DNA of 56,901 nucleotides from Prochloron sp. SulCav_FS08_3_32_3330 (lineage in GTDB: Bacteria > Cyanobacteriota > Cyanobacteriia > Cyanobacteriales > DYNF01): contig DYNF01000006.1 of assembly GCA_020721205.1 (NCBI GenBank), forward strand, positions 1 through 56,901. The letters are read 5' to 3'. Shown in pieces: positions 25,689 through 47,734 of this stretch (position 1 is the stretch's first letter; the number at the start of each line of letters is the position of its first letter). The position numbers were made by a program, and so were the translations under genes. The notes under the pieces were generated by a model. That model did no database searches and was not told the DNA's origin. It worked only from the letters and a program-made list of their open reading frames with translations.

Positions 25689-28600
25689 ATGGAGCTTAAT
25701 CATAATTCAATAAACCACAAAAAAAAGGCTTTTGATCTTGATCAAATTACTAAGAAATTTTATGATCAATTTAAAAAAGAACATCATATTTTTTTAGGTT
25801 TTATTCAAGGAATTTCGGTTAAATTTGATCAAGAATGGTATGCTTCTTTAATGCTCAATCGTTTGATGTTTATTTATTTTATTCAGAAAAAAGGTTTTTT
25901 AGATGGGGATCTTAATTATCTACAACATAAATTAAATCAAATTAGATCCCCCCTAACCCCCCTTCAAAAAAGGGAAAAAGAATTAGAAAAAACCCCCCTT
26001 TTTAAGGGGGGAAGGGGGGATCTAACTTTTTATCGTTATTTTTTATTAAGATTATTTCAGGAAGGTTTAGGGCAGGAAAATAAAACAACTGAATTAGAAA
26101 AATTATTAGGAAAAGTGCCTTATTTAAACTGTGGTTTATTTGAGATTCATCCCTTAGAAAAAACCTATCCTGATCTTAATATTAATGATGAAGCTTTTAG
26201 TCAGATATTCAACTTTTTTAATCAATATGATTGGCATTTAGATGAGCATTCTTTAAACAATGATCAGGAAATTAATCCTGATGTTTTGGGTTATATTTTT
26301 GAGAAATATATTAATCAAAAACAAATGGGTGCTTATTATACTAAAGAAGATATTACCGAATATATTAGTAAAAATTGCATTATTCCTTATCTTTTTGATC
26401 AAGTTTTAAGGGAATATAATCCCCCCCAGCCCCCCTTCAAAAGGGGGGAGAAAGAGCAAGAAAAAGCCCCCCTTTCTCAAGGGTATAACCCTCAAAAAGC
26501 CCCCCTTTTTAAGGGGGGTTTGGGGGGATCAAATATTTGGAATTTATTAAAAATTAACCCCGATCGCTATATTTATGAAGCAGTAAAAAAAGGAGTTGAT
26601 TTACCTTTACCTGCTGATATTGCTATAGGTTTAAATGATGTTTCTAAGCGAGAAAATTGGCATAAACTTACTGATCAAAATTATGGTTTACCCACTGAGT
26701 TATGGCGAGAATATATTAGTAGAAGAAATCGTTATCAAGATATTAAGCAAAAGTTAGAAAACGGGGAGGTAAATTCGATTAATGATTTTATTACTTATAA
26801 CCTTAATATTAGACAGTTTGCTCAGGATTTTATCTTAAACATTGAAGACCCAATTTTATTAAAGATATTCTATCAGCAATTAGAACAAATATCAATCCTT
26901 GATCCTACTTGTGGATCCGGTGCTTTTCTGTTTTCAGCATTGAATATTCTTGAGTCTCTTTATCATAGTTGTTTAGAAAGAATGAGGTTTTTTGTTGAGG
27001 ATGATCCCCCCCTGCCCCCCTTCAAAAGGGGGGAGAAAGAGGAAGAAAAAGTCCCCTTTTTTAAGGAGGATTTAGGGGGATCAAATACTGATATTAATAA
27101 TCAAAATCGCCGTTATTTTATCCTAAAAAAAATTATCTTAAATAATCTTTATGGAGTAGATATAATGGAATCGGCGATAGAAATTTGTAAGTTACGTTTA
27201 TTTTTAAAATTATTAACACAAATAACCCCTAATCCTAGTTTACCTAATTTTGGGATTGAAGTTTTACCTAATCTTGATTTTAATATTCGTTGGGGTAATA
27301 GTTTAGTGGGTTTTGTTAATTATCAAGAAGTTAAAAAAACCGTGCAAGGAGATAAACAAACAAAGTTAGATTTGTTTAATGATCTAACTCAAATTGATCA
27401 AAAAATAAGACAAGTTAATGAATCTTATCAGCAGTTTAAAAAGATTCAATCTCAAGGAGAAATAAAGGCGGTTTTACAAGAGTCTTTTAATAGTTTAAAT
27501 GAGGAGTTAAATGGGTATTTAGCAAAGGAATATGGGATAAATATTCAGAAGAAAAAAGATTTTAAAAAGTGGCTAATTTCTCATCAACCTTTTCATTGGT
27601 TTGTCGAATTTTCTGCTATTATTAATAAGGGCGGTTTTGATGTAATTATTGGTAATCCTCCTTATATAGAATATAGTAAGGTTAAAAATGATTATCAAAT
27701 TAAAGGTTATCAAACTGAAAAATGTGGTAATTTGTCTGCTTTTATCATTGAAAGAAATAATAAATTATTGCAATCTTTTGGCTTAACTGGAATGATTATT
27801 CCTCATTCAGCTATTTGCACTGATCGAATGGAAACTTTACAATTAGAATTAACTAATCATGGTAATATTTGGCTATCAAGTTATTGTATTCGCCCTTCTA
27901 AATTATTTGATGGTGTGGATCATAGATTGGCTATTTATATTATGAAAAAGCAAGGAGATCATAATATTTATTCTTCTAAATATCATCGTTGGTATCAAGA
28001 GTTAAGAAATAGTTTATTTACTTTGTTAGAATATACCAATATAACACAGATAAAATTTACTAATTCTTTTCCTAAATTACATAATGTTTTAGAAAATAGG
28101 ATTTGGTATAAATTAATTAAATTTAATAGTTTAAATCAATTTTTAGATCAAGAAAAAACAATATATTTTCATAATGCTCCTCGTTATTGGATTCGATCTA
28201 TGAATTTTATTCCTTATTTTTGGAATGAAAAAGATGGTGAAAAAATATCATCACAGGTAAAATCTATTGCATTAAAAACAGATTTAGATGCTCTTACTTT
28301 GGTAGCTATTTTGAATAGTTGTCTCTTTTATTGGTGGTTTATTCTTCTTTCTGATTGCCGTCATTTAAACAGTAGAGAAATTAATAATTTTCCTGTCGGT
28401 TTAGATAAAATGAGTAATTCTTTTAAAGCTAAATTAGCTAAATTAGCACAGGATTTAATGATAGATTTACAAGATAATTCTGTTAGAAAAAACTGTAATT
28501 ATAAAGCCACAGGTAAAGTTATTTATGATGAATATTATCCTAAATATTCTAAATCAATTATAGATGAAATAGATCAATTATTAGCAGAACATTACGGCTT

Positions 28601-28697
28601 GACAGAAGAAGAATTAGATTTTATTATTAATTATGAGATTAAATATCGAATGGGAAAAGAGTTAGAAGAAGATGAGAAAAAGTTACTTAAAATCTGA
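25689..28697 (+). CDS. Type IIG-like restriction-modification methylase, nuclease end apparently missing
   Basis: 1002 residues of the Eco57I-type class. SAM site DPTCGSGAF (405-413), a second part at NNLYGVDIMESAIEICKLRLF, catalytic NPPY (656-659), and a C-terminal target-recognition region (~700-1000). Relatives I know of usually have a nuclease domain before the AFDLDQITKKFYDQF segment; here that segment starts at residue 14, 25 bases after the vWA gene, so the protein may be a methylase without cutting function. Three palindromic elements inserted in frame encode residues ~86-112, ~244-281 and ~439-465. No frameshift is seen. Adenine methylation is expected from NPPY. Confidence 0.82.
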   Translation: MELNHNSINHKKKAFDLDQITKKFYDQFKKEHHIFLGFIQGISVKFDQEWYASLMLNRLMFIYFIQKKGFLDGDLNYLQHKLNQIRSPLTPLQKREKELEKTPLFKGGRGDLTFYRYFLLRLFQEGLGQENKTTELEKLLGKVPYLNCGLFEIHPLEKTYPDLNINDEAFSQIFNFFNQYDWHLDEHSLNNDQEINPDVLGYIFEKYINQKQMGAYYTKEDITEYISKNCIIPYLFDQVLREYNPPQPPFKRGEKEQEKAPLSQGYNPQKAPLFKGGLGGSNIWNLLKINPDRYIYEAVKKGVDLPLPADIAIGLNDVSKRENWHKLTDQNYGLPTELWREYISRRNRYQDIKQKLENGEVNSINDFITYNLNIRQFAQDFILNIEDPILLKIFYQQLEQISILDPTCGSGAFLFSALNILESLYHSCLERMRFFVEDDPPLPPFKRGEKEEEKVPFFKEDLGGSNTDINNQNRRYFILKKIILNNLYGVDIMESAIEICKLRLFLKLLTQITPNPSLPNFGIEVLPNLDFNIRWGNSLVGFVNYQEVKKTVQGDKQTKLDLFNDLTQIDQKIRQVNESYQQFKKIQSQGEIKAVLQESFNSLNEELNGYLAKEYGINIQKKKDFKKWLISHQPFHWFVEFSAIINKGGFDVIIGNPPYIEYSKVKNDYQIKGYQTEKCGNLSAFIIERNNKLLQSFGLTGMIIPHSAICTDRMETLQLELTNHGNIWLSSYCIRPSKLFDGVDHRLAIYIMKKQGDHNIYSSKYHRWYQELRNSLFTLLEYTNITQIKFTNSFPKLHNVLENRIWYKLIKFNSLNQFLDQEKTIYFHNAPRYWIRSMNFIPYFWNEKDGEKISSQVKSIALKTDLDALTLVAILNSCLFYWWFILLSDCRHLNSREINNFPVGLDKMSNSFKAKLAKLAQDLMIDLQDNSVRKNCNYKATGKVIYDEYYPKYSKSIIDEIDQLLAEHYGLTEEELDFIINYEIKYRMGKELEEDEKKLLKI
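25944..26023. repeat. In-frame C/G-rich palindromic element, copy 1
   Basis: AGATCCCCCC at the left and GGGGGGATCT at the right bound an 80-base element with inner hairpins. It is read in frame inside the methylase gene as SPLTPLQKREKELEKTPLFK and following residues. Confidence 0.8.
26419..26529. repeat. In-frame C/G-rich palindromic element, copy 2
   Basis: ATCCCCCCC...GGGGGGAT, 111 bases, inside the methylase gene. The first half gives PPQPPFKRGEK and the last half KAPLFKGGLGGS. An extra internal CAAGGGTATAACCCT hairpin makes it longer than copies 1 and 3. Confidence 0.8.
27003..27082. repeat. In-frame C/G-rich palindromic element, copy 3
   Basis: GATCCCCCCC...GGGGGATC, 80 bases, inside the methylase gene between the SAM motif and the next conserved block. 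Encodes DPPLPPFKRGEK, then VPFFKEDLGGS; the right arm has drifted from the palindrome. Confidence 0.8.
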
Positions 28698-45357: not shown

Positions 45358-45930
45358 TTACCAAACAATAGTTAAATCTAAAGTAAATTGAGGTAAAATA
45401 TTTTCCCCTGATAAACTCTCAGGATGATTTAATATTTCTTTTTCCTTTCCTTGACGATAAATTTCAACTATTTTTGATTTACGATCAATTAACCACCCTA
45501 ATTTTACCCCATTATTCATATATTCCACCATTTTATTTTGAGTATTAATTAAAGTATCCGTTGGTGACATTAATTCTAAGACAAAATCAGGAGCGATCGG
45601 CGGAAATTTCTCTCTTTCTTCTAAGGTTAATTGATTCCATCTTTCTAGTTTAATCCAAGCAACATCAGGGGAATATTTTGTTTTATTAGGAAGCTTAAAA
45701 CAAGTAGAAGAATCAAAAACTTTACCTAATTTTTTTTGACGATTCCAAATCCCAAATTCTGCATTAATTTCGGCATTAATAATACCAGTTTCTCCGCCTG
45801 TTGGGGACATAATAATTAATTCTCCTTTATGATTTAATTCAAATTTTAGATCAGGATTATTGCGACAAAGTTGATAAAATTGTTCATCATTCATTGCCGT
45901 AATTGAGCTAATATCAATTGTATAATTCAT
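45358..45930 (-). CDS. Uma2-family (DUF820) protein
   Basis: 190 residues, paralogous to the protein at 39548-40120: FELNHKGELIIMSPTGGETG, TKYSPDVAWIKLERW, DFVLELMSPTDT, KMVEYMNNGVKLGWLI. The PD-(D/E)XK residues (Asp in SPDVAW, Glu in VLEL) are present. Its AAGGAGAAA ribosome site lies upstream on the minus strand. Divergent from the ArnT-like gene. Function unknown. Confidence 0.88.
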   Translation of the reverse strand: MNYTIDISSITAMNDEQFYQLCRNNPDLKFELNHKGELIIMSPTGGETGIINAEINAEFGIWNRQKKLGKVFDSSTCFKLPNKTKYSPDVAWIKLERWNQLTLEEREKFPPIAPDFVLELMSPTDTLINTQNKMVEYMNNGVKLGWLIDRKSKIVEIYRQGKEKEILNHPESLSGENILPQFTLDLTIVW

Positions 45931-45997
45931 GGTTTTTTTCTCCTTATTTAAGATAAACTATTTAGTTATCTTAAAATTAATATTTAACAATAAAGGA

Positions 45998-47734
45998 ATG
46001 CACAAAATTCAAAAATGGTTGAGTAAACCAGATCATAAATCAGTTATTACTATTTTAGCTTTAGGTTTGCTAATTCGCTTAATTATTGCCATTTTTTTAA
46101 CCCCCGGCTACGATGAGGCATATTATTATCTCTATACTGAGCATTTAGACTGGAGTTATTTTGATCACCCAATTTTAGTGGCTTTAACTACGGGTTTTGG
46201 TAGGTGGATCACTGGTCACACTTCTATCTTTACCCTCAGAATTGGTACATTGTTGTTGCATACAGGAAGTTTATGCTTATTATATCTCACTGGTACTCAT
46301 CTTTTTGGCAAAAAAACCGGAGTTTATACCCTTGCGATCGCCTCGATTATTCCCATGTTTCAGGTCGCTTTTGGTACAATTACCCTACCCGATTGTCCTT
46401 TAATCTTTTTTTGGACAGCATCCCTCTATTGTGCTAGTTTAGAGTTTTTTCCCCTTATTGATCCCCCCCTGCCCCCCTTCAAAAGGGGGGAGTGTGATCC
46501 CCCCCTGCCCCCCTTCAAAAGGGGGGAGTTTGATAACTACTCTCCGAGTTATAAAATCGCAATTTTAGGAATATTAACAGGATTAGCTTGTTTAGGAAAA
46601 TATCACGGGTTTTTACTCGCTTTCGGTATTCTTTTATTTTGTCTAATTAACCCTCGTTATCGCTGTGTATTTCGTTCAAAATGGGCAATAATTGGGATTT
46701 TAATCTTTTTTATAACTCTGTTTCCGATCTGGTTTTGGAATGCCAATCATGACTGGATTACCTTTAAATTCCATTTAGGAGAGCGTTTTGAGCCTGATCC
46801 CGATGAACCTTTACCCTCCTATAAATTACCTAACTTAATCGGTGTATTTCTCGCTAATATCGGCTATTTATTCCCCACAATGGGGTTTCCTTTATGGTGG
46901 GTAAGTCTGAAAACTCTTTTTAAACAAATTCCTAGTTTTTTAAATCCTCATAAAGCAGAAAAAAGAACAATTTTAGAGGATCAACAATGGTTTATTTTAT
47001 CTGTTTCCCTACCTTTAACCCTTGGATTTACCCTTTTAGCTTACTTTCAACAGATCTTAGCCACATGGGCAATGCCCGGATTTTGGGGTTTAACCCTACT
47101 TTTAGGACAACAAACCGTCATTTGGACAGAAAAATATTCTCGAAAAAAAGTTAAATTATGGCTAAAAAGTACCGCTATTATTGTGAATATCCTCTTATTT
47201 ATTGCCTTACTTCACGTTACCACAGGTACATTTCAAAAAAATAGTCAATATTCTTTATTTGGCGGTTTTGTCTCAGCAAAAAATGATCCTTCTACTGAGC
47301 TTTTAGATATAGATCAACTAAGAAAAGGCTTTGAAAAATCAGATTTATTACAAGAATACTTACAAAAAACAGATTTTATTTTCACTAATACCTACTATTT
47401 AGGCGGTTTAATAGACATGGCATTACGTCCGATTACAACGCTACCGATCGCTTGTTTTAGTGATGATATGAGGGGTTATCTGTTTTGGGATAACTCCGTT
47501 AACTGGGTAGGAAAAGACGGATTATATATCACCTTAGAGCGTTTTCACAATAAACCTAAAATTATGAATGATTACCGTACTTATTTTACCGAAATTCGGG
47601 AACTTGCGACTATTCCTTTGCGTCGAGGAGGGGTGACAACAGAAGTATTTTATATTTATTCTGCCAAAAATTTAACTAAAGCTTATGATCCATTAAAATC
47701 AAGTCAAAATTCAAAAGTTAACAGTCAAAATTAA
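45998..47734 (+). CDS. ArnT/PMT-like membrane glycosyltransferase
   Basis: 578 residues from the ATG at 45998; an upstream in-frame ATG at 45929 is rejected because it overlaps the Uma2 start and gives an unlikely leader. GT-C fold: first loop GYDEAYYYLYTEHLDWSYFDHP holds the catalytic Asp-Glu and the conserved DHP, then about ten membrane helices. Such enzymes transfer sugars from a polyprenyl-phosphate donor to lipids or proteins in the periplasm. Residues ~155-178 (DPPLPPFKRGE twice) come from a repeat inserted in a loop between helices. Confidence 0.83.
   Translation: MHKIQKWLSKPDHKSVITILALGLLIRLIIAIFLTPGYDEAYYYLYTEHLDWSYFDHPILVALTTGFGRWITGHTSIFTLRIGTLLLHTGSLCLLYLTGTHLFGKKTGVYTLAIASIIPMFQVAFGTITLPDCPLIFFWTASLYCASLEFFPLIDPPLPPFKRGECDPPLPPFKRGEFDNYSPSYKIAILGILTGLACLGKYHGFLLAFGILLFCLINPRYRCVFRSKWAIIGILIFFITLFPIWFWNANHDWITFKFHLGERFEPDPDEPLPSYKLPNLIGVFLANIGYLFPTMGFPLWWVSLKTLFKQIPSFLNPHKAEKRTILEDQQWFILSVSLPLTLGFTLLAYFQQILATWAMPGFWGLTLLLGQQTVIWTEKYSRKKVKLWLKSTAIIVNILLFIALLHVTTGTFQKNSQYSLFGGFVSAKNDPSTELLDIDQLRKGFEKSDLLQEYLQKTDFIFTNTYYLGGLIDMALRPITTLPIACFSDDMRGYLFWDNSVNWVGKDGLYITLERFHNKPKIMNDYRTYFTEIRELATIPLRRGGVTTEVFYIYSAKNLTKAYDPLKSSQNSKVNSQN
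46460..46531. repeat. Two 36-base in-frame palindromic units
   Basis: GATCCCCCCCTGCCCCCC, TTCAAAA and GGGGGGAGTxT, repeated exactly (46460-46495 and 46496-46531). Each unit is 12 codons and reads DPPLPPFKRGE plus one residue. Same family as the elements in the methylase gene, here as two left halves in tandem. Confidence 0.85.

What the first reader, a model, noticed from the sequence alone, without database searches (positions are those of the whole stretch)
25944..27082. Palindromic DNA elements inserted in frame in a methylase gene, adding proline-rich peptides
Three C/G-rich palindromes (about 80, 111 and 80 bases) interrupt the methylase coding sequence yet keep the frame, always in the same phase: the left half reads PPLPPFKRGE-like, the right half PLFKGGLGGS-like. 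They fall between conserved motifs. This resembles Rickettsia palindromic elements, i.e. a selfish DNA that tolerates life inside genes because both halves are open in the same frame.
Basis: seen in the sequence. Interest (0 to 1): 0.75.

Follow-up and report, generated by a model that had tools for sequence, protein, structure and literature searches.

The report
In-frame palindromes linked to homing nuclease
Short DNA palindromes have spread through this cyanobacterium's genome and mostly sit inside working genes without breaking them; related palindromes elsewhere surround a small DNA-cutting enzyme gene (DUF559), which points to a little-noticed kind of gene-inserting selfish DNA.

Summary
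Three C/G-rich palindromes (about 80, 114 and 82 nt) lie in frame in a 1002-aa Eco57I-type methylase gene. "Always in the same phase" is only partly right: the left half of copy 1 is read in another phase. They belong to a dispersed family, here called C6. In the host genome 17 of 19 examined loci lie in frame inside long genes (7 restriction-modification methylases, a MetH-like protein, a CobN/Mg-chelatase-family gene, glycosyltransferases). The C6 pattern occurs in 288 of 389 genomes of the order, but in six others sampled it is mostly intergenic (4/20 in ORFs). Orthologues lack the C6 inserts. New here: a paralogue in the same genome carries, at site 3, a related palindrome pair enclosing an entire in-frame DUF559 endonuclease domain. 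DUF559 genes are flanked by inverted C/G palindromes in 56/80 cyanobacterial loci (1/100 controls). Palindrome type follows DUF559 clade, clades reuse the same host-gene sites, and DUF559 also occupies the endonuclease slot of inteins. I read C6 inserts as the short form of palindromic elements whose likely mobiliser is a DUF559 homing-type nuclease. Mobility is inferred, and genomes with many C6 copies but no DUF559 exist.

The parts
25689..28697 (+). Host gene: 1002-aa Eco57I-type DNA adenine methylase (resembles the BREX PglX and Alw26I families, but below their cut-offs)
25944..26023 (+). C6 insert at site 1 (aa 86-111), RSPLTPLQKREKELEKTPLFKGGRGD; left hairpin read in the alternative phase
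   Evidence: loop is short in orthologues
26418..26531 (+). C6 insert at site 2 (aa 244-281), NPPQPPFKRGE...PLFKGGLGGS, with an extra partial unit; net +111 bp against the Dolichospermum orthologue
27003..27084 (+). C6 insert at site 3 (aa 439-465), DPPLPPFKRGE...FKEDLGGS; the same linker holds palindrome + DUF559 in the own-genome paralogue L070
46463..46526 (+). Second C6 locus in the window: two units head to tail (PPLPPFKRGECDPPLPPFKRGE), in frame in a glycosyltransferase gene
45929..47731 (+). Host ORF of the 46-kb copy, PMT/PMT_2-like mannosyltransferase

Best explanation
The three inserts are copies of a dispersed cyanobacterial palindromic repeat (C6: tail GATC-C6-NN, hairpin C6-TTNNNAA-G6, usually two units in inverted orientation) that entered the gene after it diverged from its orthologues and persist because length and open phases keep the reading frame and the sites are variable linkers (shown by comparison). 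They are the short form of a wider superfamily of C/G tail-plus-hairpin palindromes whose long form carries a DUF559 (PD-(D/E)XK, Vsr/EDxHD-like) endonuclease ORF between inverted halves, in frame with them and, when inside a gene, usually with the host gene (architecture shown). Inferred mechanism: the DUF559 nuclease cuts an empty target; repair copies the palindrome, with or without the nuclease gene, into the break; in-frame linker insertions survive. There is no splicing, so the proline-rich peptide or nuclease domain stays in the host protein. Short copies would be moved in trans or be deletion derivatives.
For: Hosts: 17 of 19 examined own-genome C6 loci are in frame in long ORFs with recognisable domains. 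Orthologues lack C6. DUF559 inside palindromes, in frame: own paralogue L070 at site 3, and L187 in an MmeI-type gene with C6-type palindromes. Association: 56/80 DUF559 loci have flanking inverted palindromes against 1/100 control positions; 24/30 in Vampirovibrionia-type genomes; 7/10 plasmid loci, mostly Alphaproteobacteria and Deinococcus. Palindrome type follows DUF559 clade: 9 changes against 32.1 shuffled, 0/200. DUF559 clade follows insertion site: 10 against 25.5, 0/200. Of 26 DUF559 domains in open frames over 300 aa, 21 are palindrome-flanked in host genes and 5 lie in intein-like HINT domains, the homing-nuclease slot. Site A shows a full series: empty (L304 and at least eight others), short palindromic insert (own C86, L328), DUF559 plus palindromes (L113, L129, L182, L184, L185, L186). 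DUF559 has been assigned to the EDxHD homing family (PMC9403480); nearest solved structure 3hrl. Among G000-G039, C6 is present in 18/24 genomes with DUF559 and 6/16 without, p about 0.02.
Against: The own genome has one DUF559 gene, with a different palindrome type. G001 has 177 C6 matches and G036 has 90, both without DUF559. Genomes with C6-type DUF559 need not be rich in C6 (G536: 7, G495: 7). The short insert at site A is C6 while the DUF559 elements there carry another type (T3), so it is not a simple remnant. No transposition, excision or nuclease activity was seen. No consistent target duplication was recognised by eye.
Confidence: 0.55

Rival explanations
1. DUF559 genes are passengers. 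The palindromes spread by another route (REP/REPIN-like, IS200/IS605-type transposase in trans, or gene conversion and horizontal transfer), and DUF559 homing genes settle inside palindromes because these are already tolerated sites.
For: C6 is abundant in genomes without DUF559. C6 copies in six other genomes are mostly intergenic like ordinary REPs: 4/20 in ORFs. The same linkers are hit by different palindrome types.
Against: Palindrome type follows DUF559 clade, also within one genome (G218: L118 T1, L127 T2; G403: L207 T1, L218 T3; G142: L186 T3/T4, L191 T5). Full DUF559 elements have matching inverted halves on both sides.
Confidence: 0.3
2. Permissive-linker model without specific targeting: random insertion everywhere, with only in-frame, stop-free insertions in flexible loops surviving selection.
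For: The inserts lie in low-confidence loops of the AlphaFold model, although that model is poor overall (mean pLDDT 63.7). Different palindromes recur at the same linkers. Two stop-free phases are used.
Against: It explains survival, not movement, and does not by itself explain the DUF559 clade-to-site match. It is compatible with the best explanation as its selection step.
Confidence: 0.25
3. Classical REPIN mobilised by a RAYT (HUH/Y1 transposase).
For: Tail plus hairpin, often two inverted units, matches REPINs. GTAG REPs occur in cyanobacteria and REPs are known inside genes of other bacteria (PMC3733652).
Against: No GTAG or CGTC tag is seen. The own genome has only two Y1_Tnp genes (open frames 143 and 138 aa), and neither is flanked by C6 units.
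Confidence: 0.1
4. Artefact: assembly error or pseudogene.
For: Some copies lie at contig ends (C70, C144, C47), as repeats do.
Against: The same element recurs in frame in 17 host ORFs with recognisable domains, and the 1002-aa ORF has no frameshift.
Confidence: 0.03

Closest known systems
Rickettsia palindromic elements (RPE)
   Same: Repeated palindromes inserted in frame in many unrelated genes (PMC10969869, PMC3733652)
   Different: Different phylum, no CGTC tag; relatives of the cyanobacterial palindromes enclose a DUF559 endonuclease
GTAG/CGTC-tagged REPs and REPINs with RAYT transposases
   Same: Tail-plus-hairpin units, often inverted pairs; a nuclease gene flanked by clade-specific repeats
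   Different: No tag; the flanked gene is a DUF559 PD-(D/E)XK nuclease and not an HUH transposase; own-genome copies mostly intragenic
EDxHD/Vsr-like homing endonucleases and inteins
   Same: DUF559 sits in HINT domains (L195, L197, L199-L201) and recurs at fixed sites of conserved genes
   Different: In the palindromic elements there is no splicing domain, so the insert stays in the protein
Cyanobacterial small dispersed repeats (Elhai 2008) and MITEs such as Nezha
   Same: Small non-coding mobile repeats of cyanobacteria
   Different: Elhai 2008 is not held, so identity with C6 could not be checked; Nezha is described as a MITE
Coding palindromes of Nematomorpha mitochondria
   Same: Inverted repeats inside translated genes (PMC6649704)
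   Different: There both arms encode conserved host protein; here the insert is extra sequence

Membership tests
Rickettsia palindromic element | Palindromic repeat inserted in frame in several unrelated genes | tested here: met
   17 host ORFs in frame
Rickettsia palindromic element | CGTC-tagged terminus (RPE-4/6 as described in PMC3733652) | tested here: not met
   Units end in GATC/AATC followed by C6
Rickettsia palindromic element | Sequence homology to a Rickettsia RPE family | not tested
   No RPE sequences were compared
REP/REPIN with RAYT | GTAG or CGTC tag at the foot of the hairpin | tested here: not met
REP/REPIN with RAYT | Y1 (RAYT) gene flanked by the same repeat | tested here: not met
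   Two Y1_Tnp genes in the own genome without C6 flanks; other genomes not searched for this
DUF559-associated palindromic elements (group proposed here) | Palindromes of the same type flanking a DUF559 ORF | tested here: met
   C6-type at L187, L234, L239; other types widely
DUF559-associated palindromic elements (group proposed here) | A DUF559 element of the C6 type in the host genome | tested here: not met
   The single own DUF559 (L070) has T3-type palindromes
Homing endonuclease element | Nuclease domain at a fixed site of an allele that also exists empty | tested here: met
   Site A series and tree-site clustering, for the DUF559-bearing relatives, not for the C6 inserts themselves
Homing endonuclease element | Cleavage of the empty allele | not testable with these tools
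   Needs a biochemical assay
Intein | Flanking splicing domain | tested here: not met
   No intein domain reported around the window inserts or L070; HINT present only in L195-type genes

The most novel reading that the evidence does not exclude
A widespread bacterial class of mobile element: a DUF559 homing-type nuclease gene framed by its own clade-specific C/G palindromes that inserts in frame into genes, especially restriction-modification methylases, without splicing, and leaves short palindromic derivatives that become permanent peptides of host proteins.
Probability: 0.45. Interest if true: 0.85.

Novelty: new variant of a known kind. Interest (0 to 1): 0.7.

Why it matters
To my knowledge how in-frame palindromic elements such as RPEs move is unclear. 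A nuclease family that sits inside such palindromes across several phyla, and whose clades match both palindrome type and insertion site, gives a candidate mover that can be tested directly. It would also give DUF559, still named a domain of unknown function, a role, and show a route by which new peptides enter ordinary bacterial proteins.

Tried and rejected
RAYT/Y1 mobiliser: own Y1 genes have no C6 flanks. C6 inserts as direct remnants of a DUF559 element at the same site: rejected for site A, because the palindrome types differ. In-frame intragenic location as a property of C6 everywhere: rejected, 4/20 in six other genomes against 17/19 here. DUF559 needed in the same genome for C6: contradicted by G001 and G036. 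Target-site duplication: none consistent (looked at by eye). Elhai 2008 is not held. The AlphaFold model of the host protein is too poor for firm structural claims.

Full report
WHAT IS THERE. The window (contig C181 of a 4.73-Mb, 209-contig assembly; its relatives are cyanobacteria, judged from their gene content and named homologues) has a 1002-aa ORF at 25689-28697 with an Eco57I methylase domain. Three C/G-rich inverted repeats lie in it at 25944-26023, 26418-26531 and 27003-27084. Each is stop-free in the host frame. Two fold far better than shuffles and the third is degraded. The phase is not always the same: the left half of copy 1 reads SPLTPLQK, those of copies 2 and 3 PPxPPFKRGE. Each half has a stop in at most one frame of three, so two phases are usable, and genomic copies use both. 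Taken whole, copies 1 and 3 are now open only in the host frame on this strand, copy 2 in two frames.

INSERTED, NOT ANCESTRAL. Orthologues from Dolichospermum (60% identity), Thiotrichaceae, Chloroflexi, Candidatus Magnetominusculus and others lack the C6 peptide at all three sites. Site 2 is a clean gain of 37 codons; at sites 1 and 3 part of the native linker is also missing. An Anaerolineae orthologue (L267) carries other palindromic in-frame inserts at sites 2 and 3, and relatives L074 and L076 carry palindrome-type peptides at sites 3 and 2. These linkers are hit again and again.

A GENOME-WIDE FAMILY. A search with copy 2 gave 41 matches in the own genome, many of them two arms of one element. 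Of 19 loci examined in detail, 17 lie in frame in long ORFs and 2 (C17, C115) between genes. The hosts have recognisable domains: seven methylases of restriction-modification type, a MetH-like methionine synthase, a CobN/Mg-chelatase-family protein, a hydantoinase, an aminotransferase, three glycosyltransferases, two FGE-sulfatase-domain proteins and a DUF4915-TPR protein. Four further loci were not counted: three at contig ends (C70, C144, C47) and one (C146) where no hairpin was found again. The C6 pattern occurs in 288 of 389 genomes of the order, with almost no matches to the reversed control pattern. Among 20 copies from six other genomes (G031, G403, G412, G434, G435, G469) only 4 were in ORFs, although 109 of 140 random control positions are. 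The intragenic habit is therefore special to this genome or to lineages not sampled.

THE DUF559 LINK. A paralogue in the same genome (L070, contig C143) has no insert at site 2, another palindrome type at site 1, and at site 3 that same type split into two inverted halves enclosing a complete DUF559 endonuclease domain, all in one frame. I then examined 80 DUF559 loci of the phylum, taken from the best-scoring matches. Alignment of the left flank with the reverse complement of the right flank scored 14 or more in 56/80, against 1/100 control positions 10-100 kb away from 20 of these loci. Six hairpin types defined from these flanks occur at 68/80 loci and in 1/80 control windows. The types were defined on the same loci, so the type-blind 56/80 is the fairer figure. 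Controls were not matched for intergenic position; the 21 palindrome-flanked DUF559 domains in long host frames are less open to that objection, although L186 looks frame-shifted at its upstream edge. Separate sets agree: 24/30 loci of the deeper-branching f47-type genomes, which I take to be Vampirovibrionia, and 7/10 plasmid loci from Alphaproteobacteria, Deinococcus and Picosynechococcus among others.

SPECIFICITY. On a DUF559 tree, palindrome type changes 9 times (shuffled mean 32.1) and insertion-site class 10 times (shuffled mean 25.5), with no shuffle as low in 200. The tree has few columns and includes near-copies, so these counts show clustering, not independent events. Within single genomes, DUF559 genes of different clades carry different types (G218, G403, G142). 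Five of 26 long-frame DUF559 domains sit in intein-like HINT domains (the intein models match weakly), and a published genome paper assigns a DUF559 gene to the EDxHD homing family (PMC9403480). At site A of Type ISP genes there are empty alleles, short palindromic inserts (own C86, L328) and DUF559-plus-palindrome inserts.

C6 AND DUF559. C6-type palindromes flank DUF559 at L187 (in frame in an MmeI-type gene), L234 and L239. C6 is commoner in relatives with DUF559 (18/24 against 6/16), but G001 and G036 have many C6 copies and no DUF559. DUF559 in the same genome is thus not needed for C6 to persist, and whether it moves C6 is open.

MECHANISM. Shown: insertion relative to orthologues, reading frame, family structure, enclosure of DUF559, clade specificity. 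Inferred: cutting of an empty site by DUF559, copying of the palindrome during repair, survival of in-frame linker insertions. The main rival is that DUF559 genes settle in palindromes spread by something else.

LITERATURE. In-frame palindromes are known from Rickettsia (PMC10969869, PMC3733652) and REPs inside genes from several bacteria (PMC3733652). Searches of the held library found no report joining DUF559 to palindromes. Most subscription papers are not held, so priority is not established.

Noticed in passing
46463-46526: A second C6 locus in the window has two units head to tail instead of inverted, in frame in a mannosyltransferase-like gene.
   Followed up: partly
L195, L197, L199, L200, L201: DUF559 inside intein-like HINT domains of DNA methylase genes in several cyanobacteria.
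   Followed up: partly
L267:3650-4520: Anaerolineae orthologue with other palindromic in-frame inserts (SSPDPFSTGEG...GFGVRS) at sites 2 and 3 of the same methylase.
   Followed up: partly
L303-L332 (G006): Genome G006 holds dozens of Type ISP-like paralogues, many with apparent insertions near site A.
   Followed up: no
L245:641-4000: C6 insert in frame in a CobN/Mg-chelatase-family gene, probably housekeeping; a good target for mass spectrometry.
   Followed up: no
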